Shown here: piece after piece, positions 3,311 through 23,889 of the stretch | How the letters are laid out: each line of letters begins with the position of its first letter | Numbering within the stretch: the stretch's first letter is position 1 | Notes under the pieces: generated by a model | Database searches by the model: none | Told to the model about the DNA's origin: nothing | Seen by the model: the letters and a program-made list of their open reading frames with translations, nothing else | Translations under genes and position numbers: made by a program | From: Fulvia fulva | Taxonomy: Eukaryota > Ascomycota > Dothideomycetes > Mycosphaerellales > Mycosphaerellaceae | Direction of reading: 5' to 3' | DNA length: 64,000 nt | NCBI RefSeq assembly: GCF_020509005.1 | Contig: NC_063018.1 | Coordinates: 248,001-312,000 of the forward strand

Positions 3311-6300
3311 ATGCCCTTCACCACATTTGGCGTCGCGACAGCCGTTACGCCTTCAGTGATCGAGACCTACTTCTCACATTTCCTTAATAGAGGTCCTCTC
3401 AAGCAAAAGCCGACTGCACACATATCCTACCACGAAGGACTGCGCCTGATCCGACAGTTCCTCGACTACAGCGCGAAACATCCCGTGGAAGACTTGCAAT
3501 CTTTCACTGCACAATGGGTACCAGTACCGACCTGGGTCAAGACTCAGGATGTCGAGATCCCTCCGCAGTTCCTTACGCGCTCTGCGAATGTCATCCGGAA
3601 ACAGCTAGGTCCGAATGGAATCGAGCGCGTGGGAGGAGAGAAGTGGTGGCAGTGGAGGCGGAGTGAAGCTCCACTACACGCAGAATGGATCGAGATGAAG
3701 AAGGACTACAATGAGCGGAAACGAATGGGCATCAAATGCGATCGCGTCATACTGTACATCCATGGTGGTGCCTACTACTTTGGATCAGTGGACGAACATC
3801 GGTACCAGATGCAACGCCATGCGCGAAAGCTGAAGGCGAGAGTCCTAGCTCCGCGATACAGGCTTGCACCACAATTTCCATTTCCATGTGGCCTCTACGA
3901 CTGCATAGCTACCTACTTCTACCTCCTGGAGCACTTCGAGCCGAGCCAGATTCTTTTTGCAGGCGATTCGGCTGGCGGAGGCATGGTGCTGAGCTTGCTG
4001 GTGACTTTACGAGATCAGGGATGTCCTTTACCAGCTGGCACCATACTGCTATCTCCTTGGGTTGACCTCACCCACTCTTTCCCATCCACTGCCGGCGACG
4101 GCACGGGCGACTATATACCACCTCATGGCTTCCACCACAAACCTTCCATGACATGGCCGCCTCCACCGCAGACCGAAGAGAAGGCTAACAAACTGGCCAA
4201 GAAGTTCACACAACCCATAGAACAGCCGTTCGAAGTCGTGGAGCTTCCCGCTGACATGGGGACTGGACCGGCGACGGGTAATGCTAGTCGAGGCAACTTT
4301 GGCAGAGAGAAGAAGCCGCAGCCAAACCTCAACCAGCTGCCTGGGATGGGCGAACGTCTCGAGATCAACATCGACGGCAAGCTGCTGGTGCTGAAAGAGC
4401 AGATTCAGCTGTATGCTAAGAACGACTTACTGACGCACCCACTCGTATCGCCTGTACAGCAACCATCGCTTGGTGGCCTTCCCCCAATGCTTATCCAGGT
4501 CGGAGGTGGGGAGCTTCTGCGAGATGAGCAGATCTACCTTGCCCACAAAGCAGCAAATCCTAGACGGTACGTCCCCAGCGAAGCGATCATGGAGGAGTAC
4601 GACCCACAGCGAATCGTTCTCAACCAATACCCTCCGACGGATGTACAGCTCCAAGTCTGGGAAGATCTCTGCCATGTCCCCCACACGTTGTCCTTCACTC
4701 GACCTGCAAAGTACATGTATAGGTCCGTGGCGCAGTTCGGTGCTTGGGCTTTGGCGCGCGCTCAGCACAAGGGGATCGAGATCCTGGACGACGACGCCAT
4801 CTCCATCATTAGTAACAAGTCTGATGGCACATGCGCAACAGAAGGCACTGATGCTTCAGGCGCGGAGCGACAGAGTGAATATGGCAGCATTGGAGCCGAT
4901 GGTGTCACCTCTTCGCAATTTAAGTTGTCCTCTGTTGGTGCAGTGGGCAAGGCTGGCGACGAATTACCGCCATTTGTCGACCACATGATCCGTCAGCGCG
5001 TCAACCGGCACGGTGTTATTTACCCTCTCCCACACGAATCGAACATCGCAAGCTTGCACCTGGACCCTTCCACCATCGGTACCATCAAGGTCGGTCCTGT
5101 TCGAAAGTGGCTTGCAAAGAGAACGGAGAGTGAACAGAAGTTTGCGAACGACTACAAGAAACTGCTCAAGAAGCGGGCGAAAGAGCTGAAAGAAGGCTAT
5201 GATCCTATCGAGACGGGCGAGAATCCGCCGCCCACCGCGTTGTATCTGCGAAGAAAACGAGATGTTGCCCCGGAGGAGAAGAAGAAAAGCAAGAGCTGGG
5301 GTCTGGCAATGTGGAGTGGTTGGGGCAGCTCTCACGATGAAAGCACCATACAACGTGAAGAGAAGGCACTCGATGACAAGTCAATTCAAGACGACAGGCC
5401 AGCAAGCACGGCGCCGAGCACTGCAACCCAGCGTGGAGCCAGCAGCGTTGAGACTGAGCGAGGTCTAGACCACAACACGAGCGACCCCACCACGAAGCAA
5501 CAAACTGTTCCCGGCAACGACGGCACGGTTGATGCTGAGACTACGGCACAACGCAGGAGGTCGAGCGCAAGTGTGCTTTCGGCGATAGCACCATGGTCGA
5601 AGGGCCCGGACCTTCGGCCTCGCAGTCCTTATCGACAGGTGAAAGACGTTGGCCAAACAGAGGTTGAAAGAAGCTCTGCTGTGTCGCCGACACTCAGTCC
5701 TACCAGTCCAGTGCATGGTGGCACACGATGGGACAGTAGTCGGCGATCAAGCCAGGCTTCAAGCATTTTCAAGTTTGCTACACGGCCTCTTAGCGTCGCC
5801 GGCCCGGTTGCCTCGAGTGCGACAAAGAGTCAGCTCCAAACCATCCATACGCCAGCTTCGCCGACTTCGAATGCCATCGCCCCAAGCGCCTCCGACACAG
5901 GCAAAGATGCGGTCAAGGTCCCCGGCACAGATGCGACCTATCTCAACCCGGATGGGAACAGGCCGCATAATGGTGTCGTAGCTTATCCGTTCAAGCTACG
6001 AAGTGCTCAGAACGTGCCGCGTCAGCCATCGCCGAATCCTTCCACCATGACATTGGACAGCAATGTGGACGGCAGCGACAATGCTACCGAACGCAACGGT
6101 TCGCTCACGTATGCTGACGCACCACGACCAGGGAGCACGATTCTGGACCACTACTTTCCACCAAACGTTGATCAGCTAATGCACGCCAAAGACGGCGAGT
6201 CTGTGGGGCAATCGGCGGAGAGGCAGGGTCTTGAAACATCCACGACTGCCGATAACGTGCCGATCACGGGTGGCGTGTCTCAAGATGCATTGAACACATT

Positions 6301-7597
6301 CCAAAGCAATATATCTGGTGGTCGACCTGTCAGTGTGCTCTCTGACACACCGCTTTTCAAGCACTTGAAGTCGCCTGAAGAAGATCCTGTCAGCCCACTC
6401 TCCGAAGCAGCCATTTCTCCACTCGAAGCCAGTTCCGCGACCTCGGCCGACCCTGCATCGAAGCCTCGATACAAGCAATACAAACCCACGAGAGACTCAA
6501 GGCTGGGACTTCTGGGCGGAGACGGCATGCCATTGTCTGCATTTCCAACACCAGACCAGAAAGAAATCGGCATGGCCATCACCGACTCGGCACCAAAACC
6601 AGCTCCGTTCAAGATCCGCAACCCAGTCTTCGATCCTCGAGCGGTACCTGAGCAAGTGCCTGAGCATGCAGCTGTACAGCAAGTCCAACCCGAAGCGAAC
6701 GCTGAAGCTTCGAAGCCCGCACCTTTCAAGATGAGGCACACCATCTACGACTCAAAGGTCGCTCCACCAGGCAGCAAGCATGCCGACGAGCAAACGCCAG
6801 CTGTCCCAGCCAGCAATGGTCGTGCCGCCACGGGCTCTGCAAATGCTACTAAACGAGAGGTAACGCCATCAGAATCATTATCTACATCCCTCCCAGCTGC
6901 TCCAGTCCAGCTGTCGCCAATCACACCAATCTCGCCTTTGGTACCACTGCACGAAGAGAAAGAGGCTGTCATGGCCACAAGCGATATAGCTCCTACCTTT
7001 ATTGAACCACCGGCAAATACTAACATCACGTTCCCTACAGTCAGCAGCTCCAACGCACGCCCAGTAGCTGATCCGCGATCGACTGAGGACCCTCCAGCGC
7101 CACCGCCGAAGGACAAGCATACTGCTCTGCCACAGCTACGCTCGAACCCCAGCAGCGCTAGTATGAATGGAGGGTATTCTCTCGTACCAGCTCTTCGATC
7201 GAAGCCGAGTAATGCCAGCATCAACGCCTCCAGCCCAATCGCGAACTTACGCTCCTCGCCCAGCCAGGCCAGTATGCGGGATGGCAGCATGTCCAGTATG
7301 AGCAACCGAAACGAACGGAACGGCAGCGTGTCTGGAAGCATAAAACGGAAACAGATTGTACCAAAGAGCAAATTCGCTGCTGATCCTGATCGGACCATGA
7401 CGGCTCTCGAGGCTGCTGGACTTGCGCCTGCACCCAAGGCGCCCAAGCCGAAGAAGGAGAAGAAGGACTCGAAGAAGGATAAAAGCTCTACGGGTCTTCT
7501 AGGCAAGCTGAGTTTTGAGAGGAAGGGCAGTGTGCCGAGTATCGAGGAGCAGGTGCAGAAGGGGTATCTTTCGGAGTTGCAGGGTGGGAAGTTCTAG
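3311..7597 (+). CDS. Alpha/beta-hydrolase (hormone-sensitive-lipase type) with a very long disordered tail
   Basis: Single-exon gene of 1428 residues with a good start context (CACCATGCC). The N-terminal 480 residues form an alpha/beta-hydrolase-3 domain. It has the oxyanion-hole motif HGGAYYFGS near residue 150 and the nucleophile elbow GDSAGGG near 218. The probable acid Asp lies in GGGELLRD near 402 and the probable His in DLCHVPHTL near 452. The remaining roughly 950 residues are low complexity, rich in Ser, Pro, Ala and Lys. This tail holds two copies of a KPAPFK-M/I-R motif (near 1095 and 1140) and LRSNPSSAS-like repeats near the end, before a Lys-rich stretch. Family knowledge supports esterase or lipase activity on acyl esters; the substrate is unknown. 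The tail may be a regulatory or scaffold region. Confidence 0.85.
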   Translation: MPFTTFGVATAVTPSVIETYFSHFLNRGPLKQKPTAHISYHEGLRLIRQFLDYSAKHPVEDLQSFTAQWVPVPTWVKTQDVEIPPQFLTRSANVIRKQLGPNGIERVGGEKWWQWRRSEAPLHAEWIEMKKDYNERKRMGIKCDRVILYIHGGAYYFGSVDEHRYQMQRHARKLKARVLAPRYRLAPQFPFPCGLYDCIATYFYLLEHFEPSQILFAGDSAGGGMVLSLLVTLRDQGCPLPAGTILLSPWVDLTHSFPSTAGDGTGDYIPPHGFHHKPSMTWPPPPQTEEKANKLAKKFTQPIEQPFEVVELPADMGTGPATGNASRGNFGREKKPQPNLNQLPGMGERLEINIDGKLLVLKEQIQLYAKNDLLTHPLVSPVQQPSLGGLPPMLIQVGGGELLRDEQIYLAHKAANPRRYVPSEAIMEEYDPQRIVLNQYPPTDVQLQVWEDLCHVPHTLSFTRPAKYMYRSVAQFGAWALARAQHKGIEILDDDAISIISNKSDGTCATEGTDASGAERQSEYGSIGADGVTSSQFKLSSVGAVGKAGDELPPFVDHMIRQRVNRHGVIYPLPHESNIASLHLDPSTIGTIKVGPVRKWLAKRTESEQKFANDYKKLLKKRAKELKEGYDPIETGENPPPTALYLRRKRDVAPEEKKKSKSWGLAMWSGWGSSHDESTIQREEKALDDKSIQDDRPASTAPSTATQRGASSVETERGLDHNTSDPTTKQQTVPGNDGTVDAETTAQRRRSSASVLSAIAPWSKGPDLRPRSPYRQVKDVGQTEVERSSAVSPTLSPTSPVHGGTRWDSSRRSSQASSIFKFATRPLSVAGPVASSATKSQLQTIHTPASPTSNAIAPSASDTGKDAVKVPGTDATYLNPDGNRPHNGVVAYPFKLRSAQNVPRQPSPNPSTMTLDSNVDGSDNATERNGSLTYADAPRPGSTILDHYFPPNVDQLMHAKDGESVGQSAERQGLETSTTADNVPITGGVSQDALNTFQSNISGGRPVSVLSDTPLFKHLKSPEEDPVSPLSEAAISPLEASSATSADPASKPRYKQYKPTRDSRLGLLGGDGMPLSAFPTPDQKEIGMAITDSAPKPAPFKIRNPVFDPRAVPEQVPEHAAVQQVQPEANAEASKPAPFKMRHTIYDSKVAPPGSKHADEQTPAVPASNGRAATGSANATKREVTPSESLSTSLPAAPVQLSPITPISPLVPLHEEKEAVMATSDIAPTFIEPPANTNITFPTVSSSNARPVADPRSTEDPPAPPPKDKHTALPQLRSNPSSASMNGGYSLVPALRSKPSNASINASSPIANLRSSPSQASMRDGSMSSMSNRNERNGSVSGSIKRKQIVPKSKFAADPDRTMTALEAAGLAPAPKAPKPKKEKKDSKKDKSSTGLLGKLSFERKGSVPSIEEQVQKGYLSELQGGKF

Positions 7598-7882: not shown

Positions 7883-8033
7883 AAAAAATCCCAAACAATC
7901 ACCTCCGTCCCGCGGGCTCGACAGTCACCGGTGGTCAGTTCGATAAATGCCTACATGGACATAGATCGAGTCGACTCCGTGTCCGCTTCCATCAGTATAT
8001 TGCTGATTGCGCCACTGAGGCGGAGGTGGTTGT
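7883..8033 (-). ncRNA. Candidate structured RNA, unit 1
   Basis: Stem arms 7895-7909 and 8019-8033 pair over 15 positions, two of them T-G in plus-strand terms. The inner hairpin is ATCAG/CTGAT at 7991-8007. On the minus strand the unit ends in T6 (plus-strand A6 at 7883-7888). A TATA-like box on the minus strand lies at 8057-8067, 24 bp before the stem. It is followed upstream by a CT/GA repeat (8064-8080). In this unit the wobble pairs favour the plus strand, unlike most others. Confidence 0.6.
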
Positions 8034-8149
8034 CGGAGGTAGAGAGGGCTGGGGGGTATGTGTAGCTCTCTCTCTCTCTACTTGTGTGTGCTGAAAAGAG
8101 ATGGGTTCGGCCAGAGTTGGACGGTCGTGGAGAAGTATAGCATTGGAGC

Positions 8150-8283
8150 AAAAAGATCAAAACAATCACCCCCGTCTCGATAGCAGGAATGCACCAGCAC
8201 GAGGTCTCTGCTATGCAATGATTGCTTGACACCCCGCGATAGCCAATGCACATTGATTGCGCCATCGAGGCGGAGATGAGTGT
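8150..8283 (-). ncRNA. Candidate structured RNA, unit 2
   Basis: Stem arms 8162-8180 and 8265-8283. The inner part (TCGAGGCGGAG with its partner) pairs well; three positions near the base are non-canonical on the plus strand, and two of these become G-U pairs on the minus strand. The inner hairpin is around 8243-8256 (CCAATG/CATTG). The T5 run corresponds to plus-strand A5 at 8150-8154. The TATA-like box is at 8308-8317, 25 bp from the stem. At 122 nt between stem ends, this is the shortest unit. Confidence 0.6.
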
Positions 8284-8408
8284 CGAGAGTCACGCGGTCT
8301 GGTGACGATATCTAGCTTTGCCCTGGGGGTTGATGGGAACATGAAATCTCTGGGGGTTTGAGGGTGGTAGAGATGGTAGGGAAATGGAGGCAAGGTTGGA
8401 GCGGAAGC

Positions 8409-8560
8409 AAAAATTATAGGAACGATCACTTCCGTCTCGAAGGCGCCATAAGAAGTGAAGAAGAGAAGCAAGAGCAACGACTGGTCATCGTTGACCGCTT
8501 TTTCTTCCACCTGGCGGTTTGAGTCAATACTGACTTTGCCATCGGGGCGGAGGTGATTGT
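8409..8560 (-). ncRNA. Candidate structured RNA, unit 3
   Basis: Stem arms 8422-8440 and 8542-8560 pair at all 19 positions, counting four G-T wobbles on the plus strand; these would be A-C mismatches on the minus strand. The inner hairpin AGTCA/TGACT is at 8522-8535. The T5 run corresponds to A5 at 8409-8413. The TATA-like box is at 8583-8593, 22 bp from the stem. Confidence 0.6.
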
Positions 8561-8676
8561 CGAGGAGGTGGATTTGATGAGGTATGTGTAGGGCATCATC
8601 GCTGTTGGATGCTAGACCTTTGACGGCTCGGAGTAAAAAGTAAAATAATATGGTCAACAAGGACAGGCAAAGGAGC

Positions 8677-8823
8677 AAAAAGAATAGAACAATCACCTTC
8701 GTCCAGCTGGCTGGAAATCAGCGCCGCCACCTACAGCTGCGCTCAGCTGTATGAGAGGCGGCGCATTGTACGTCTGACCAATCAATGTCGCATTGATTGA
8801 GTTACCCAGGCGAAGACGATCGT
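8677..8823 (-). ncRNA. Candidate structured RNA, unit 4
   Basis: Stem arms start at 8689 and end at 8823. Here the core has changed to CTTCG on one side and CGAAG on the other, compared with CTCCG/CGGAG in units 1 and 3: a two-sided change that keeps pairing. The inner hairpin is the best in the family, a perfect 9-bp stem with a 3-nt loop at 8779-8799. The T5 run corresponds to A5 at 8677-8681. The TATA-like box is at 8848-8858. Confidence 0.65.
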
Positions 8824-8939
8824 CGAAGCAATCGAAAGCTGGGTGGCATGTAAAGCTTCAATGGGTGACGGAGTGCATGGGATAGCCGCAAGGCCACACA
8901 AGATAGAGGCAGCGACTTGACCATGTGCAACTCAGGGGC

Positions 8940-9088
8940 AAAAAGAAGAAAACGATCGCCTTCGTCCCAGCGGCCGTATGTCTTAGAAAGATATACTCGA
9001 TGTTTGGCAATCATCGAAGATGCCTTCCTAGAGATACCACCAGGAGCCAGTGCGGTACTGACTGCGCCACTGAGGCGAAGACGACCGT
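8940..9088 (-). ncRNA. Candidate structured RNA, unit 5
   Basis: Stem arms 8952-8970 and 9070-9088. Compared with unit 4, two positions that face C on the other arm have changed from A to G, restoring G-C pairs. The inner hairpin AGTCAGT/ACTGGCT (minus strand) lies at 9045-9063 with a 5-nt loop. The T5 run corresponds to A5 at 8940-8944. The TATA-like box (ATGTATAG on plus) is at 9113-9123. Confidence 0.65.
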
Positions 9089-9181
9089 CGACAGCTACGA
9101 GTTTCCGCTGGAATGTATAGATCAGCATACCCCAAGGTGCAAGTAAAATTGACGAGACTCAAAATCCTCCTGAGTAATGGC

Positions 9182-9347
9182 AAAAGAAAGAAAGAACAAA
9201 ACAATCACCACCGCCTCCATGGGATCACAGACACAAGGAAGGACCAGCTGGATACTAGAAGGAAGCATCGGAGCGCGTCTCTAATGATGATGAGATTTGA
9301 GCGAAGAGGTAATCCATTGAATGGGCCACAGAGTCGGAGATGACTGT
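9182..9347 (-). ncRNA. Candidate structured RNA, unit 6 (most diverged of the array)
   Basis: Stem arms 9201-9222 and 9326-9347 pair less well than in the others, with at least two true mismatches on either strand. The small inner hairpin CCATT/AATGG is at about 9314-9324. The T run is only T4 (A4 at 9182-9185), with further A-rich sequence up to 9201. A TATATGG-like element at 9372-9380 lies about 25 bp from the stem. This copy may be decaying. Confidence 0.5.
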
Positions 9348-9455
9348 CGATGGTTTGATGATGTGTCCAGATTATATGGCTTGGGTGTGCGCAACGGGCA
9401 TATGAAAGGCACAAGACTTGCCTTAGTATCATTCTGGCGAGGAAGTGGAATGTGC

Positions 9456-9602
9456 AAAAAGAACAACCACCTCCCACTCGATGGTTGCTATTTCAAGCCG
9501 TCCCAGCTAATGCTAGAGAGCATTAAGGGGAAGCCGAACGTCGGAGCATGAGTCGTCGACCTGCTTCCAGATTGACTACATCATCGAGCCGGAGACGATT
9601 GT
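9456..9602 (-). ncRNA. Candidate structured RNA, unit 7
   Basis: Stem arms 9463-9484 and 9581-9602. Read as minus-strand RNA, about 20 of 22 positions pair when G-U is allowed; on the plus strand five or more are mismatched, so this unit supports minus-strand transcription. The loop contains a further hairpin AATGCT/AGCATT near 9510-9525. The T5 run corresponds to A5 at 9456-9460. The TATA-like box TATGTATAGCT (plus) is at 9626-9636. Confidence 0.7.
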
Positions 9603-9778
9603 CGAGGTGTCGATGTTTTGGTTTGTATGTATAGCTGCTACAAGCCCGGGATGACATGTGATGCGTACACAGCTTAGTGTAGTAGTTTGTATCCGATGCC
9701 AGATCAACCAATGTATGCGTCTCTACCGAGCCCACACATGGAAGGTAGACAGTATTGCCTTTAAGAAGCACAAGATGC

Positions 9779-9929
9779 AAAAAGAACAACCACCTTCGGC
9801 CCGATGATACCCAGCACTTCATCGCCCACCGCCGATGCTATGCAAGCATTGGGGGCAGGTATGGGTGCCAGGCAAACAGGAGCCGATCTGCTTTAAGATT
9901 GACTGCACCATCGAGCCGAAGACGGTTGT
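9779..9929 (-). ncRNA. Candidate structured RNA, unit 8 (best stem)
   Basis: Stem arms 9786-9808 and 9907-9929. As minus-strand RNA all 22-23 positions pair, with several G-U pairs; as plus-strand RNA four would be A-C mismatches. The inner hairpin AUCU/AGAU shows a one-base two-sided difference from unit 7. The T5 run corresponds to A5 at 9779-9783. The TATA-like box CATGTATAGCT (plus) is at 9954-9964. Flanks beyond the box resemble those of unit 7, so the two are probably a recent duplication. Confidence 0.7.
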
Positions 9930-10283
9930 CTAAGGGTCAAAGTTCTGGTTCGACATGTATAGCTTGTGCCGTCCTAGGGTGGCATGTGATCGCTGACGGC
10001 GGAAGATTGGTGTTGCTGCCAAGTGGCCAATCGAGAAGTATGGCATGTTGCGACAATCTGGATTACCGTTTTGTCTTACGATGGAAGGCTCGGTATCCAG
10101 CATTGCTGTGCTTCGACCTCAAGCACAAATACGACGACCAGCCTCGAGAGGAGGCCAATTATCGACCTCTCGACAATGTCCGCGTCCATGCATGTTCAGT
10201 TGATGTGGTTTAGCAGAACAAACGGCGGACTGCCTCAGGATGGCTTCATCTCACATCTTCACATTTTCATCCACTACCCACCT

Positions 10284-11082
10284 CTACAACATTCCCTTAG
10301 CAGTCTGCTCCTTCCTCTCCTCCCAAACCGTCTTCCCACTACAACTACACACCGTCTTATCATTGTCCCAAACCCCCGCACTCCTCGCCACGACCCCTAC
10401 CAACGTATCCGCATCCTCCCTCTCAAACTGCTCCATCTTCCTACTCACCACCACAGACCTCCCAATCATCTCCCAAATCTGAATCGGCTTGTCAACAAAC
10501 ACCGAGCCCAACCCACTCTTCCCCACCTCAATCGTCCCAAACACCCCCTTCACCCCACTCCTACGCTCCTTCTTCGCGGCGATGGCATCCCAGATTCCAC
10601 CGGTTGAGGCCGCGCCGTTGGAGATGTCGCCGGTCTCGCGGACTGTGACGTGGTAGGTCCCGGGTGACACGCCCTTGAGGGTCATGTCAAGGATTGTCAT
10701 GGTGTCGGAGACTTGGACCATGCGGATGAGGCCTCGGACGTGGTCCTGGACTTTTGTCGAGTGGGTTTCGAGGATGCAGACTGCGGCGGATTCTGCTCGG
10801 CCTGAGCCACGGAGGATGGCATCGCGGCCTGTGTCTTGAATGGCGGAGACGATGGAGGAGGGGGCGGCGTTGCCGGTTATGGAAATGAGTTGGGATTTTA
10901 GGTCGGCGGAGACGTTTTGTATGCCTGTAGAGTGTGAGAAGAGAGCGAGAGGTATGAAAGTTGTTCTGTAGTACATGTATCTTACCATTGAGCTTGTATA
11001 ACGACGTAGAAACATCCTTGATGCAGTCTTCGCAACTTAATGGGACGGCAAAGGTAGTCTCAAAAGGTGGTATCGAGGTCAT
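10284..11082 (-). CDS. CCS1: Copper chaperone for superoxide dismutase
   Basis: Two exons, 11082-10986 and 10924-10284, joined across a 61-bp GTAAGA...CAG intron, give 245 residues. CCS1 loads copper into Cu/Zn superoxide dismutase (SOD1) and helps form its disulphide in the cytosol and mitochondrial intermembrane space. The N-terminal HMA-like domain has the copper site CEDC (Cys17, Cys20). The middle (about 75-215) is the SOD-like docking domain. The C-terminal CSC motif (Cys225, Cys227) transfers copper. The gene ends 320 bp from the RNA-like array and runs divergently from the uricase gene. Confidence 0.92.
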
Positions 11083-19202: not shown

Positions 19203-20208
19203 GCTGTGTGGGTGCTCTCAGGATGGTGGATGTGAGGATTGTGCAGGTATGATGGGTGTTGCAAGTGTAGGAGGAGGGTGAAATGTGGTTGATGAAGAAG
19301 ATTTGGCGCGCGTTGAAGAGAGCAACATTCTGGGAGCTCCTGCCTTGTGAATGCAAGTCATTGTGACGTCGGTTTGCAGCTGTGGCGCAAACATCACGCT
19401 CAGCCAATCAGAGAGCTGTGCACAGGAACAGGCATGGCAACGCATTACGGCGACTGGACACGCCAGATTCTCGTCGCAGGACACATGTCATCTTGAGCTG
19501 TCGAGCAAGAAAGACGGCAGGATCGTCATTGAGCACATCGCATACAAACAAAGTCGCAAGGATGTGATCGCGATAGCGAGGCGATAGCGAGAGTGTCGGT
19601 AGAACTACGATGAGCACTTTCATGGTCATGGTCATGCTCATGCTCAGGCACCAGGGAATAGAGACTTATTTGCTTTAAAGCGATCGTTCTATGATACAGA
19701 TACATCTCTGCCAGTCTTCTCTCTGTCAGTCGTCTCGGAGTATAGGTGAACATGAGAGGAGAACAGTTCGCCGCACAACATTGCCCGCCAAGCTTCACAT
19801 TGTGCTGCCAGGCCGGTCCATGCCGCGGTCGCTCTCGTCTTCGCGCCGCCCCTCCGTGCATCATCATGTGAAAGTTTGGGGTCATCCTTCCACTCCCAAA
19901 GCATCGGAATGACCTCCATCATGCTACCTCGTGCGACACATCTTCACGCTGGCATTTGCTTTGCTTGCTGCAGCCTCTTCAAGTGAGCACACCTCTCCCG
20001 CCCCGCCGAGTCACGTAGACTGTTGTAGTGAAGCAAGAGTGATGGGTTTGTTGTATGGCAGCCTTTGGTAAGTGCAACGGCGCAACCATGGCATCTACCC
20101 AAGATGGGCCTGAGGAAGCGACTGTGCAAGAAATATTGGCGGAAAGTCATAGAGCGAGTGCTGATGGAGCGGCCTTTTCCCGCAACAGACACACCTTGGA
20201 CCACGTCA
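19203..20208. other. Divergent promoter region
   Basis: About 1 kb between the ISH1-repeat gene and the peroxin gene, which point away from each other. The only notable feature is a short imperfect repeat of CATGGTCATGGTCATGCTCATG near 19620-19642. I see no supported gene. Confidence 0.4.
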
Positions 20209-21822
20209 ATGAGCGACCGGCCATCCAACAGCCATGCGTACGATGGCGCCCGCGATAACTCTGTGCCTGAGACGACGGTAGCTCCCTTCTCGCCGAATCA
20301 ACAGACTGTTACGAAGAATCGAAACAAAGCGACTGTGCTGATACACCAGAAGTCACCGCTACTTGCTGCCACTCCACCGCAGGTCACGCGAGCGTTGGCA
20401 TATTCGCATCCTTTCATTGTGCCGCTGAACTACTTGGTGGGACTGCTATCATGGACTACAGGAGATCCGTGGGAGAGCTTCCTGATGGTGGCAGTGTTTT
20501 GGTTCACAATACTGTACGTCGATGATCTGCTGCGATGGGCGGGGCCGATAGTGGTCGTCGCAGCACTGATTGCGGGCATGTACTCGAGGAGGTACAGTCC
20601 ACTGTCAAGTACAACATGGAGCGGGCACAAGAGGAAGCGCAGTCGGGCGGCCTCCGAGTCTGAGTACAGAAAGAGCTTGGACGAGATACTGGACACGCTA
20701 CAGATCTTCACGAACCGATGCGATGTGCTGCTCGATCCTCTGCTGCGCTTGACGGAATTCTTGAGCACGCAGACCACTGCGACATCTGCGACAACGAGAC
20801 CTGCTTTGACGTCCATGTTAATACGCTTGCTGGCTATCACTCCAACATGGATCATCCTGATGCTGCCACCCTTTCGCATCATCACGATGCAACGTATCCT
20901 CCTTGTACTCGGGACCATTGGTTTGACATGGCACAGCATGCCGGCACGAGCATCTCGATCCATACTATGGCGAAGCAAAGCTGCGCGGACTGCAGCATCG
21001 TTCATTACTGGACTAAACTACGGAACACCGTCGACAGCAAAGGATAAAAGGACGCCACCGTTTCTGCCTCCACGAGCACCAGCCGCTCTTGTAAATGCTC
21101 TTAAGCGGAAGGGTACAAGCGCAGGCGTTCGCTTCACATTCGCGTTGTACGAGAATCAACGGAGGTGGGTACTGCTAGGATACACAGCCAACCTGTTACC
21201 CAACGAGCGACAAGCCTGGTCCGACGAGCATCAGAACACTGTATCAGGCAAGGAGAACTTCCCGCTACCTGAAACAGACTCCGAAACTACCAAATGGCGA
21301 TGGGTCCCCGACAGCAACTGGAGGGTCGACCCAGCCTGGACGGAGGACCCCAGTGGCAAAGCATCGCGCGATAAGGAAGGCTGGACCTACTACGACAACA
21401 AATGGCAAGGCGGCAGCAGAATCGACGACTGGAACAAATGGACCCGCCGAAGACGCTGGATCCGCGACGCCGAGCTCGTCGAGATCTCACCCGAAGAAGC
21501 AGCAGCAGAAGCGGCCAACACCACCACTGATGCCGACTCCGAATCCATCGCACCCTCAATGGTCACCACCGACTTCGCAGACGGCGACAGTATCAGCACT
21601 GCCGTGAAGAAGAAAGGATGGTTTGGAAGGCGGAAATTGACGAACGAGAAGATCCGAGCCATTGATAAAGTGGAGATCGCCTCGATGAGTGGCAGTGGGG
21701 AGACTGGTGGGACGAGAGCGAGTAGGGACAGCCCGGAGGATGATGTTTATACGCCGCTACAATATCGAGGGAATGAGTATGATCGGAGTATTGGCGATGG
21801 GTTGACGGAAATGTTGGGCTAG
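20209..21822 (+). CDS. DysF-domain peroxin (PEX23/PEX30/Pex24p family)
   Basis: Single-exon frame. I take the ATG at 20209 (MSDRPSNSH), giving 537 residues. An in-frame ATG at 20065 would add 48 poorly typed residues. Hydrophobic segments at about 75-150 (including FIVPLNYLVGLLSW and a strong pair around IVVVAALIAGMY) form the membrane-shaping part. A second membrane pair lies near 225-280. The C-terminal DysF domain has RRWVLLGYTANLLP and the WxW pattern WRWVPDSNWRVD, then GWTYYDNKW and RRRRWIRDAEL. Family members sit in the endoplasmic reticulum or peroxisome membrane and control peroxisome number and size. Confidence 0.88.
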   Translation: MSDRPSNSHAYDGARDNSVPETTVAPFSPNQQTVTKNRNKATVLIHQKSPLLAATPPQVTRALAYSHPFIVPLNYLVGLLSWTTGDPWESFLMVAVFWFTILYVDDLLRWAGPIVVVAALIAGMYSRRYSPLSSTTWSGHKRKRSRAASESEYRKSLDEILDTLQIFTNRCDVLLDPLLRLTEFLSTQTTATSATTRPALTSMLIRLLAITPTWIILMLPPFRIITMQRILLVLGTIGLTWHSMPARASRSILWRSKAARTAASFITGLNYGTPSTAKDKRTPPFLPPRAPAALVNALKRKGTSAGVRFTFALYENQRRWVLLGYTANLLPNERQAWSDEHQNTVSGKENFPLPETDSETTKWRWVPDSNWRVDPAWTEDPSGKASRDKEGWTYYDNKWQGGSRIDDWNKWTRRRRWIRDAELVEISPEEAAAEAANTTTDADSESIAPSMVTTDFADGDSISTAVKKKGWFGRRKLTNEKIRAIDKVEIASMSGSGETGGTRASRDSPEDDVYTPLQYRGNEYDRSIGDGLTEMLG

Positions 21823-21952
21823 TGGCCTTTGATCTGATTATTGTTTTCAGCGCGGCGCTGGTGGAATTACGTACATGGTGAGCAGAGACACCTATGATCA
21901 TGCAAAAGAAACATGCATTCTCTCATCGAAAGCTCAAGTTTGTCGGATGGGC

Positions 21953-22110
21953 AAAACAATCGCCCTTGGCCGAATTGGCCGTAGGCCTCACGGGCTGGAC
22001 TGGCGACAAGTGTCGCCCGTCCAGCAATGTTCTCCCTAACAGTCTGCAGGATGTTTGCGAAGTGCTATTGCGCTTCTTACTGACTGAGCCACTGGGCCAA
22101 AGACGATTGT
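21953..22110 (-). ncRNA. Candidate structured RNA, unit 9 (isolated copy)
   Basis: This copy lies about 12 kb from the array, in the same orientation. Stem arms are at 21956-21978 and about 22088-22110. The core is TTGGCC on one arm and GGCCAA on the other, a third stem variant compared with TCCGTC/GGCGGA and TTCGGC/GCCGAA. The inner hairpin GAAG/CTTC is near 22059-22077. A TATA-like ATGTACATA lies at 22132-22140, 22 bp from the stem. The T run is only T4 (A4 at 21953-21956). At 155 nt it is the longest between stem ends. Confidence 0.6.
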
Positions 22111-22699
22111 CGATAGATGGAGATATGTTTGATGTACATATTTGGTCAGAGGTAAGCAGACTGGATGATGATATATGCTGGATGAGATGCTGACATCTGT
22201 GGAACAGAGCTGGGAGGATCGGCTCGATGCCATACAAGCTCGCATGTGGTTGGTCGACACATTGTCGATTTATGATAGTGTGGGTAGGTCTGCATCGTAT
22301 CTGCAACTGTTGACTGCCTCATCGGCCAGCAAAACGAAACATCCATTGCCGACTCTCCGGAAGAAATCCAGCAACCAAGGCCACAACGACTGCAAAACAG
22401 ACGTCCTTGGTGCAACAGCGCCACAACGCGATCAAGCAGACCGACGACCGCCTTGATTGTCGACCGGCTCAATATCATCGTTGAGTGAAGTGTGATGACG
22501 GTCCTGCTCTGGCTGTCACTACAACTGAGCCATTGCACCAAGAATGTTTGCTGGGTGTCCTCCTTTTGGCATGACTATGTACGTTCAATCGACATCTCAG
22601 GAGGCCAAGATCCTGTGCCGATGGAAAGTGCGACATCGAGAAACGAACGCAAAGATATAGATGTGGTCGGTCGTTGTGCTCCTGCCTCACGGGTACCAG

Positions 22700-22766
22700 C
22701 ATGTGAAAGCCGTTAGACTTAGCGGCGGCCGCTGCCGAAACAGCGACAAGGATGCGCGCCTCGCCA
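22700..22766 (+). repeat. Upstream conserved block, copy 1
   Basis: The block begins CATGTGAAAGCCGTTAG and ends near GACAAGGATGCGCG, about 90-155 bp before the first coiled-coil gene. Two related blocks precede the other two paralogues, so it was probably duplicated together with the genes and may be promoter sequence. Confidence 0.5.
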
Positions 22767-22854
22767 GCATATTGGACCACAACACGCCACTTTCACTTCA
22801 CCTGCCGCTGCTCAACGACTTCACAAATCACAGCACCCGCACCGCCCGCTCAAG

Positions 22855-23889
22855 ATGGCAGCAGACAAGAGGCACCATCAGGTGTTGGGCCGCGCACTAC
22901 CATCAAATGATGCAGAGGATGACGCTCCAAATCAGGGTTACGGCAACGACCTCACCAAAGCGCGCAACCTTTACGACACCGTGAACAAGGCCCTTACGAC
23001 CACCGTCAACGGCGAGTTCTTCGAAGGCACCAAATCGTCCAACGCCAACCGCCAGAGCCAGCTCCCTGAGATCTTTCAGCTTCGCGACCAAATCGAGGGC
23101 CTTGTCGACAGCGTAGCCAAGAAGGAGCGCTTGATCGCCGAGCAGGAGCGCATCAAGAACGAAGGAGCTTCCAAGCCGGCAGTGTCGAACGCCACCATTC
23201 AAGTGATGGTCCAAAGTGCAGTCGAGCAGCAGCTAGAGAAGAAGCTGCGTGATGAGATGATCAAGCGCGAGCGTGTTGAAGGACGCCTGCAGAAGCTGGA
23301 GGACAAGCAGCCTGCCACCATCGAGGGTGCGAAGAAGATTAAGAAGCCAACACCTGCAAGTGCGGATGACCTCAAAGACTTGCGGCGCAAGGTAGCAACT
23401 CAGGAGGCCGAATTCAAGAAACTTGAGGCCAAGCATGAAATAACTATCAAGGAACTTGAAGAAAACCTTCACCACCAGGAAAGTGAGATCCTCGATCTCA
23501 AGACACGAAATGCAACCTTCGCGCGGGAAAGGACCACTCTGGATTCGCGAGTGTGGAGTCAAGGTGTGAAGCTGTCAAAAATGCAGGAGATGGAGACGAC
23601 TGTGAAGGATCATGGCACAAGAATCACGGAGCAGTTCGCGAAGCTAAACCAATTGAGTCGCAAATGTGACGAGTTATGGGAGAGCTTTGGAAACTACCGT
23701 GCGCAGGCAGACAGTGTTCTAGCTGATCTCCATAATTTTATCGACGAGGAAACGGAGCACGAGGATTCCAGCGTGGACGAGGATGAGGGTGGTACTGCCG
23801 GTGACAGCAAGGCCGACGACAGCAGTGACGGGGAGAGCGATTGCTCGAGCTACGACGATTACCGGTATTTTATTAGCCGACGATACTAG
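22855..23889 (+). CDS. Coiled-coil protein, tandem family member 1 (intact)
   Basis: Single-exon gene of 344 residues and unknown function. The N-terminal 80 residues include a block LYDTVNKAL...FEGT shared with the next two genes. A long, probably continuous coiled coil spans about 80-275 (rich in K, E and Q, with heptad-like Leu/Ile spacing), including a KKIKK patch near 165. The tail (290-335) is acidic and Ser-rich, ending YRYFISRRY. No signal peptide or membrane segment is visible. It is the only one of the three paralogues without an internal stop. Confidence 0.65.
   Translation: MAADKRHHQVLGRALPSNDAEDDAPNQGYGNDLTKARNLYDTVNKALTTTVNGEFFEGTKSSNANRQSQLPEIFQLRDQIEGLVDSVAKKERLIAEQERIKNEGASKPAVSNATIQVMVQSAVEQQLEKKLRDEMIKRERVEGRLQKLEDKQPATIEGAKKIKKPTPASADDLKDLRRKVATQEAEFKKLEAKHEITIKELEENLHHQESEILDLKTRNATFARERTTLDSRVWSQGVKLSKMQEMETTVKDHGTRITEQFAKLNQLSRKCDELWESFGNYRAQADSVLADLHNFIDEETEHEDSSVDEDEGGTAGDSKADDSSDGESDCSSYDDYRYFISRRY

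What the first reader, a model, noticed from the sequence alone, without database searches (positions are those of the whole stretch)
7883..9964. Tandem array of eight candidate structured RNA genes of unknown class
Eight units at about 260-bp spacing share a layout but little sequence: long closing stem, small inner hairpin, variable loop and end motifs. Stem ends sit at 8033, 8283, 8560, 8823, 9088, 9347, 9602 and 9929. No open frame is conserved. I know of no fungal RNA family with this layout. Possible roles include small-RNA precursors (some Neurospora milRNA precursors are known Pol III transcripts) or a lineage-specific regulatory RNA.
Basis: partly seen in the sequence, partly recalled or inferred. 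Interest (0 to 1): 0.93.

Follow-up and report, generated by a model that had tools for sequence, protein, structure and literature searches.

The report
Large fungal Pol III RNA family
The eight repeats look like small RNA genes read from the opposite strand, and they belong to an apparently undescribed, highly diversified family of perhaps a hundred such genes scattered through this tomato-pathogen genome; whether they are expressed and what they do is still unknown.

Summary
The eight units lie on the minus strand. Each has a TATA-like element about 30 bp upstream, a fixed start (CGACA), a closing stem of 23 pairs that holds an A-box-like sequence, a small hairpin, a variable part and a T-run. 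That is RNA polymerase III gene anatomy; the SRP RNA and U6 genes of the same genome share the TATA position and T-run. A covariance model found a ninth unit (21953-22112) and, with pattern searches, 74 units on 11 chromosomes (65 strong, 9 weak); held-out places extend this to 13 chromosomes and an estimated total of roughly 110. Interiors are nearly unrelated (median identity 0.50), yet the stem covaries strongly (94.8% of cells paired; 16 of 23 pairs with changes on both sides). G-U far exceeds A-C in a fixed register, pointing to selection on the minus-strand RNA. No target-site duplications, B box, tRNA, curated Rfam match or Ro60 gene was found. Most likely these are stable, end-paired Pol III RNAs: constant handle, variable head. 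The chief rival is Neurospora-type milRNA precursors. Expression and presence in other species could not be tested.

The parts
7883..8035 (-). unit u1: predicted Pol III RNA gene, CGACA start to T6 run
   Evidence: R1 107.8 bits (in the R1 training set); T6 at 7883-7888
8059..8064 (-). TATA-like element of u1 (TACACA)
8150..8285 (-). unit u2
   Evidence: R1 108.2 bits (training set); T5 8150-8154
8309..8314 (-). TATA-like element of u2 (TAGATA)
8409..8562 (-). unit u3
   Evidence: R1 101.1 bits (8410-8562; training set); T5 8409-8413
8585..8590 (-). TATA-like element of u3 (TACACA)
8677..8825 (-). unit u4
   Evidence: R1 97.8 bits (training set); T5 8677-8681
8849..8854 (-). TATA-like element of u4 (TTTACA)
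8940..9090 (-). unit u5
   Evidence: R1 117.3 bits (training set); T5 8940-8944
9114..9119 (-). TATA-like element of u5 (TATACA)
   Evidence: position -29
9182..9349 (-). unit u6, with interrupted T-run TTTCTTTCTTTT
   Evidence: R1 92.6 bits (9189-9349; training set); T4 9182-9185
9373..9378 (-). TATA-like element of u6 (CATATA)
9456..9604 (-). unit u7
   Evidence: R1 92.4 bits (training set); T5 9456-9460
9628..9633 (-). TATA-like element of u7 (TATACA)
9655..9660 (-). upstream CACATG element of u7
   Evidence: -56
9779..9931 (-). unit u8
   Evidence: R1 102.7 bits (training set); T5 9779-9783
9956..9961 (-). TATA-like element of u8 (TATACA)
9983..9988 (-). upstream CACATG element of u8
   Evidence: -57
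21953..22112 (-). unit u9, found by the model, not in its training set
   Evidence: R1 36.7 bits, E 6.8e-8 (alignment); T4 21953-21956
22135..22140 (-). TATA-like element of u9 (TATGTA)
22394..22553 (-). probable tenth unit u10 (diverged 5' end CAGCAAACATTC; A-box-like TGGCTCAGTTG; TTTTGC end); not among the 74
   Evidence: R1 12.4 bits, E 0.09 with filters off; single-sequence fold -59.2 kcal/mol with a long closing stem

Best explanation
Each unit is a small gene transcribed on its own by RNA polymerase III. A TATA-like element at about -30 would place TFIIIB, an A-box-like sequence inside the 5' arm would help TFIIIC, no B box is recognisable, transcription starts at or next to the conserved CGACA and stops at a T-run just past the 3' arm (often TTTTTGC). 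The RNA, about 130-175 nt including the T-run, pairs its own ends in a stem of 23 pairs (one mismatch), followed in many members by a small hairpin and then a variable part, and ends in U residues. About 110 such genes, in head-to-tail arrays and singly, lie on 13 of the 14 chromosomes. Shown here: the family, its dispersal, the covarying stem, the fixed positions of the signals. Inferred from sequence: transcription by Pol III. Inferred, less surely: these are stable scaffold or adaptor RNAs that work like Y or stem-bulge RNAs, with the constant stem and U tail as a protein-bound handle and the fast-evolving head as the part that differs in specificity between members. I give the gene-level claim about 0.85 and the scaffold role about 0.4.
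For: Stem: 92.2% of cells paired in 10 units; in 42 units the closing helix is 94.8% paired with changes on both sides at 16 of 23 pairs; over both helices counted (28 pairs) the covariation score is 0.475 against 0.254 shuffled and <=0.168 slid (that alignment was fitted to the model, so it leans towards it). Cognate 5'/3' arms bind at -32.2 against -21.7 kcal/mol for arms of different units, 0 of 20000 permutations as good; the own arm ranks first in 9 of 24 units and in the top five in 20 of 24 (arm ends set by a simple motif, a few bases off in some). Fixed 14-pair register in 74 units (first pair excluded): Watson-Crick 0.806, G-U 0.137, A-C 0.024, against 0.621, 0.128, 0.070 for mispaired arms: selection acts on the sense RNA. 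Best TATA-like site at -32..-26 in 48 of 74 units (50 with ties broken otherwise; 7 of 114 starts, about 4.5 expected), 39 of 64 outside the training set; upstream sequence was not part of the model. T4 or longer within 45 nt after the 3' arm in 71 of 74, T4+GC in 60 of 74, against 74 and 46 of 444 upstream control windows (the model does include some of the T-run). The SRP RNA gene has TATATAA at -30, an A-box-like AATGGCTCAAACGG and CTTTTTGC; U6 has GCTATATAC near -30 and TTTTTTGC. Reversed-pattern controls gave 0, 0, 1 and 1 rows against 11, 20, 50 and 52. CACATG/CATGTG at -90..-38 in 28 of 74, against 2 of 74 for the same motif further upstream and 1 of 74 for a rearranged motif.
Against: No expression data of any kind. 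No second species could be examined. No B box (same as control), so TFIIIC use is uncertain. In 24-26 of 74 units the best TATA-like site lies elsewhere, though among those 24 the in-place site still ranks second or third of 114 in 19. The training units and pattern searches favour the window's subfamily; nine of the 74 units are weak (eight with E above 0.001, and L032_1501 taken from the pattern alone). A first, shorter pattern was not specific (31 rows against 25 in its control). Not all held-out places passed: 4 of 17 gave no model hit. RNase MRP of the same genome does not show a TATA at the expected place at the boundary reported. The interior folds only a little better than shuffled (mean z -1.24; 17 of 74 above 0), so a conserved 'head' structure is not shown, and the small hairpin pairs in only 73.8% of cells. 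Ro60 was not found, so the Y RNA mechanism proper is unlikely to apply.
Confidence: 0.75

Rival explanations
1. The units are Pol III-transcribed precursors of microRNA-like small RNAs: the closing stem of 23 pairs is cut by Dicer into roughly 21-25-nt pieces that load into Argonaute, as for Neurospora milR-1 to milR-4.
For: Neurospora pri-milR-1 is about 170 nt and intergenic, and milR-1 to -4 are Pol III-made and share a T-run immediately after the milRNA (PMC3547838, passages seen): similar size and end anatomy. Two Dicer-dimer matches and eight Piwi matches at six places. Many whole RNAs fold as long, nearly continuous rods.
Against: In the family the stem is the constant part and the head the variable part; milRNA genes would be expected to vary in the small-RNA arm. 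No small-RNA data. PMC3547838 states milR-1 has no predicted A or B box, unlike the A-box-like sequence here. The only Rfam microRNA signal in 8 loci is one sub-threshold match (MIR828, 30.2 bits against a cut-off of 69).
Confidence: 0.3
2. The units are copies of a SINE-like retroelement or a MITE with terminal inverted repeats, and the 'stem' is a relic of element ends.
For: Dispersed over 13 chromosomes in many copies; tRNA-like A box (resemblance recalled).
Against: No target-site duplications: 0 of 74 units share a word of 9 or more between the flanks compared, mispaired flanks 3.9%. No pair of interiors exceeds 70% identity in 2701 pairs. Compensatory changes and G-U over A-C are not expected of decaying inverted repeats. 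The TATA-like and CACATG elements lie outside the repeat ends.
Confidence: 0.04
3. The units are decayed or remodelled tRNA or SRP-RNA genes kept only as Pol III/TFIIIC landing sites (chromatin or boundary function), and the RNA itself does not matter.
For: A-box-like sequence resembles that of the SRP gene and tRNA D-arms (recalled); Pol III-like promoters in place; TFIIIC-only sites with chromatin roles are known in yeasts (recalled).
Against: Strong selection on pairing of the RNA ends, with sense-strand G-U bias, is not needed for a landing site; no B box; ARAGORN finds no tRNA in the window and, in 14 loci, only one call without a full anticodon, away from the unit there.
Confidence: 0.06
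4. Chance: inverted repeats and A-runs in a patchy spacer.
For: Single inverted repeats of this size do occur by chance in spacers.
Against: Eight in register, 74 genome-wide, pattern controls 0-1 rows in the four specific searches, permutation 0 of 20000.
Confidence: 0.005

Closest known systems
Y RNAs and nematode stem-bulge RNAs (sbRNAs)
   Same: Small Pol III RNAs (Y RNAs 100 +/- 20 nt) folding into stem-loops with conserved stems and a variable inner part, retained U tail, several paralogues, clustered in human (PMC4726728, passages seen).
   Different: Longer (about 130-175 nt), far more genes (74 catalogued against at least 18 sbRNA genes in C. elegans per PMC4726728), no Ro60/TROVE match in the genome, no Rfam match in the array. 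PMC4726728 (2015) says no Y RNA or sbRNA candidate was known in plants or fungi.
Neurospora Pol III milRNA precursors (milR-1 to milR-4)
   Same: Fungal, Pol III, TATA-like elements, T-run immediately after the milRNA, about 170 nt for pri-milR-1 (PMC3547838, passages).
   Different: Four major loci, no shared-stem family described in the passages seen; milR-1 reported without A or B box; there small RNAs were sequenced, here not.
Vault RNAs
   Same: Pol III, about 100 nt, ends paired, small tandem cluster (recalled).
   Different: Internal A and B boxes (recalled), whereas no B box here; no Rfam match in the array; major vault protein was not searched.
SRP RNA and U6 genes of the same genome
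   Same: TATA near -30 and T-run followed by GC; SRP has a similar A-box-like sequence.
   Different: One match each, different RNA families, no upstream CACATG in the stretches shown.
15 structured RNA motifs of fungi (Li and Breaker 2017, PMC5640933)
   Same: Structured non-coding candidates from fungal genomes.
   Different: The motif list (outline) names ribozymes, gene-linked motifs, an AU-rich hairpin and atypical snoRNAs; in what I saw (outline with abstract, section 13 and passages) none is a Pol III multigene family.

Membership tests
Pol III-transcribed small RNA gene (generic) | T-run terminator directly after the RNA | tested here: met
   T4+ within 45 nt after the 3' arm in 71 of 74 units
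Pol III-transcribed small RNA gene (generic) | TATA near -30 as in other Pol III genes of this genome | tested here: met
   48 of 74 with the best site at -32..-26; U6 and SRP alike; MRP not, at the boundary reported
Pol III-transcribed small RNA gene (generic) | Transcript made by Pol III | not testable with these tools
   no RNA-seq, inhibitor or ChIP data
Y RNA / sbRNA | Ends paired in a conserved stem, variable interior, U tail encoded | tested here: met
Y RNA / sbRNA | Partner protein Ro60 (TROVE, PF05731) in the genome | tested here: not met
   0 matches; six-frame search, exon by exon; 1 of 14 control genomes rang
Y RNA / sbRNA / vault RNA and other Rfam families | Match to a curated Rfam covariance model | tested here: not met
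   window 0 at gathering score; array 0 at E<=1; 8 further loci: one sub-threshold MIR828 match
Vault RNA | Major vault protein in the genome | not tested
tRNA | Cloverleaf and B box | tested here: not met
   ARAGORN 0 in the window; B-box scores no better than the reversed control
Neurospora-type milRNA precursor | Pol III-like ends with T-run next to the stem arm | tested here: met
   compared with passages of PMC3547838
Neurospora-type milRNA precursor | RNAi machinery in the genome | tested here: met
   Dicer_dimer 2 matches, Piwi 8 matches
Neurospora-type milRNA precursor | Discrete Argonaute-bound small RNA from one arm | not testable with these tools
   no small RNA-seq held
SINE or MITE | Target-site duplications | tested here: not met
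   0 of 74 with a shared flank word of 9 or more; mispaired 3.9%
SINE or MITE | Copies alike over their whole length | tested here: not met
   median interior identity 0.50, none above 0.7 in 2701 pairs

The most novel reading that the evidence does not exclude
A previously undescribed class of eukaryotic non-coding RNA: about a hundred Pol III genes in one fungus with a constant end-paired handle and hypervariable heads, many under a shared upstream TCACATGC-like element. It would be a diversified RNA repertoire, comparable in gene number to snoRNA or tRNA sets (recalled), in a kingdom where no Y-type RNA was known, with each member aimed at a different partner.
Probability: 0.45. Interest if true: 0.95.

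Novelty: new variant of a known kind. Interest (0 to 1): 0.86.

Why it matters
If expressed, this would be among the larger Pol III RNA families outside tRNA, 5S RNA and SINEs (comparison recalled), and it is easily missed because its members share almost no sequence outside stem and promoter. It gives a ready-made test set for two open questions: whether fungi have a counterpart of Y/stem-bulge RNAs without Ro60, and whether Pol III milRNA precursors form gene families. It also shows that structure-plus-promoter searches can find an RNA family that a plain DNA similarity search misses.

Tried and rejected
Plus-strand reading: rejected; the T-runs, TATA-like elements and A-box-like sequence are all in minus-strand register, and antisense model scores are far lower (34 bits at most against 92-117; the model was built on the minus strand). 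DNA similarity search of the array against its own genome finds only itself, because the units share too little sequence. tRNA, tmRNA and Rfam searches: nothing at curated cut-offs, one sub-threshold MIR828 match. B box: none above control. Y RNA proper: Ro60 not found. SINE/MITE: no duplications. Protein coding: stops in all three sense frames of 5 of 9 window units; the 161-aa ORF 8211-8696 overlaps units without matching their boundaries.

Rows left out of the 74: pattern places without an R1 hit (L005, L009, L010, L026; L044, L055; L051 apart from u9); L020 1396-1531 (15.4 bits), dropped as degenerate; antisense rows and overlapping duplicates; u10; the 17 places. Of those 17, 13 gave a sense R1 hit at E<=0.01 (one of them, L086, only 71 nt) and 4 did not (L072, L079, L084, L085); on the 3' arm alone, which the pattern does not contain, 11 of 17 beat 95% of shuffles (L084 among them, which I think is chance). 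The first pattern was not specific: 31 rows, 25 in the control. The TATA test with a matrix trained on the window units put the best site in place in only 9 of 16 other units; the broader test is. The mispaired control also favours G-U over A-C (0.128 to 0.070), so part of that ratio is base composition; the excess in cognate arms is the evidence.

Literature: 10 searches of the open PMC library (listings read) showed no description of such a family; subscription papers and preprints are not held.
Full report
WHERE IT IS. The window is G000:C7:248001-312000 of a 67,169,167-base, 14-contig genome. The Cladosporium (Fulvia) fulvum Race 5 assembly has 67.17 Mb in 14 contigs (PMC9453070, passages). 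In the part of its table that I saw, Chr4 to Chr11 have exactly the lengths of contigs C4 to C11; Chr3 differs from C3 by 192 bases (6,232,865 against 6,233,057), so the record may be a slightly later version. The array lies between an alpha/beta-hydrolase gene on the plus strand (3311-7597) and a Cu/Zn-SOD-domain ORF on the minus strand (10284-11015).

Read on the minus strand, the eight units start with CGAC (AGAC in u8), carry an arm like CGACAATCATCTCCGCCTCGATGGCGCAGTCA, a small hairpin, a variable part, an arm like GCCATCGAGACGGAGGTGATTGTT, and a T-run. A TATA-like hexamer (GCTATACAT in the clearest cases) lies 27-32 bases upstream of each. Each unit therefore has its own start and stop signals.

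THE STEM IS SELECTED AS RNA. RNAalifold put the closing stem on the first alignment unprompted. On 10 units 92.2% of the cells of 23 pairs are standard pairs, against 87.8% in shuffles and at most 58.3% when slid. Across 24 units, arms of the same unit bind each other far better than arms of different units (-32.2 against -21.7 kcal/mol; 0 of 20000 permutations; own arm first in 9 of 24, top five in 20 of 24). In a register chosen by Watson-Crick pairs alone, 74 units give Watson-Crick 0.806, G-U 0.137, A-C 0.024, against 0.621, 0.128 and 0.070 for mispaired arms. Inverted DNA repeats under decay should not favour G-U over A-C beyond base composition (1.8 to 1 in the control); here the ratio is 132 to 23, so the minus-strand RNA is what is constrained. 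In 42 units 94.8% of the cells of the closing helix pair and 16 of 23 pairs have changes on both sides, with up to six pair types per pair (an alignment fitted to the model).

A GENOME-WIDE FAMILY. The array as DNA finds only itself. A covariance model from ten units (R1) found a ninth unit in the window, 21953-22112, at 36.7 bits, and with filters off a probable tenth, 22394-22553. A first short pattern was unspecific (31 rows, control 25) but led to two further units on C9. Four stricter patterns (11, 20, 50 and 52 rows; controls 0, 0, 1, 1) and R1 on the fetched loci gave 74 distinct units: 65 at E below 0.001 or in the training set and nine weaker ones (one, L032_1501, rests on the pattern alone). 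They lie on C1, C2, C3, C6, C7, C8, C9, C10, C11, C12 and C13, singly or in clusters (eight in L065, five each in L066 and L068); held-out places add C4 and C5. No row of these searches lies on C14. The pattern matches 28 of the 74 units and 45 distinct places in the genome (52 rows, counted by hand); 13 of the 17 new places have R1 support. So the family has roughly 74 x 41/28 = 108 members. This is crude, because detection favours window-like members.

SIGNALS OUTSIDE THE MODEL. The model contains no upstream sequence, yet the best TATA-like site falls at -32..-26 in 48 of 74 units, 39 of the 64 not used in training, where about 6% is expected; in the rest it mostly ranks second or third (19 of 24). 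T4 or longer follows the 3' arm in 71 of 74, with GC after it in 60. A CACATG element lies at -90..-38 in 28 of 74 units in either orientation, against 2 of 74 further upstream; in the 31 sites the base before is T in 26 and the base after is C in 19. The SRP RNA gene of this genome has TATATAA at -30, an A-box-like AATGGCTCAAACGG and CTTTTTGC; U6 has GCTATATAC near -30 and TTTTTTGC. RNase MRP, at the boundary reported, shows no such TATA. No B box stands out from control.

WHAT VARIES. Interiors have a median identity of 0.50 and no pair above 0.70 in 2701. They fold somewhat better than shuffled sequence (mean z -1.24; 18 of 74 below -2, 17 above 0), whole units much better (mean z -5.5). 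The small hairpin after the A box pairs in 73.8% of cells. So the constant part is promoter plus closing stem; the head diversifies.

WHAT IT IS NOT. No tRNA, no Rfam family at gathering score in the window or at E<=1 in the array, no shared open frame, no target-site duplications (0 of 74), no Ro60 match.

HOW IT PROBABLY WORKS. Shown: the anatomy and the selection. Inferred: TBP/TFIIIB at the TATA, help from the A box, Pol III initiation at CGACA, termination at the T-run, La on the U tail. Further inferred: paired ends give a stable RNA with a common protein-binding handle and member-specific heads, as in Y or stem-bulge RNAs (PMC4726728, passages, which also says none was known in fungi in 2015). 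The main rival is a Dicer substrate: Neurospora milR-1 to -4 are Pol III transcripts with a T-run right after the milRNA (PMC3547838, passages), and this genome has two Dicer-dimer matches and eight Piwi matches. The constancy of the stem and variability of the head speak mildly for the scaffold; only RNA data can decide.

NOVELTY. Ten literature searches (listings only) found no description; the 15-motif fungal screen (PMC5640933: outline with abstract, section 13 and passages) does not list such a family; the fungal hairpin re-analysis (PMC9757828, passages) has no occurrence of 'dothideomycet', 'zymoseptoria' or 'tandem' in its main text. I rate it a new variant of a known kind (end-paired Pol III RNAs): the family itself appears new, while its working principle may prove familiar.

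Noticed in passing
L086 (C13:1085060-1085440), 127-197: A 71-nt R1 match (37.9 bits): full 5' arm and A box but a much shortened body; possibly a compact family member.
   Followed up: no
upstream of 28 of 74 units, e.g. window 9655-9660 and 9983-9988: TCACATGC-like element at -49 to -86, either orientation; it resembles a bHLH (Cbf1-type, recalled) site and is not seen in the U6 and SRP upstream stretches shown. It may mark common regulation.
   Followed up: partly
L029 (C11:2308 kb) and L039 (C2:5170 kb): Pairs of divergent units (c11b/c11c; L039_1495/L039_1781) share one CACATG element between them.
   Followed up: no
G000:C13:119170-120167: A Piwi-domain match split in two pieces, one with an in-frame TGA; may be a broken or intron-containing Argonaute paralogue.
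   Followed up: no
G000:C12:2274572-2275087: RNase MRP RNA match spanning 516 bases against a 266-position model, so it carries large insertions.
   Followed up: no
window 21823-22854: The ninth and probable tenth units lie between a Pex24p-domain ORF (20065-21822) and an ORF without Pfam match (22855-23889).
   Followed up: no
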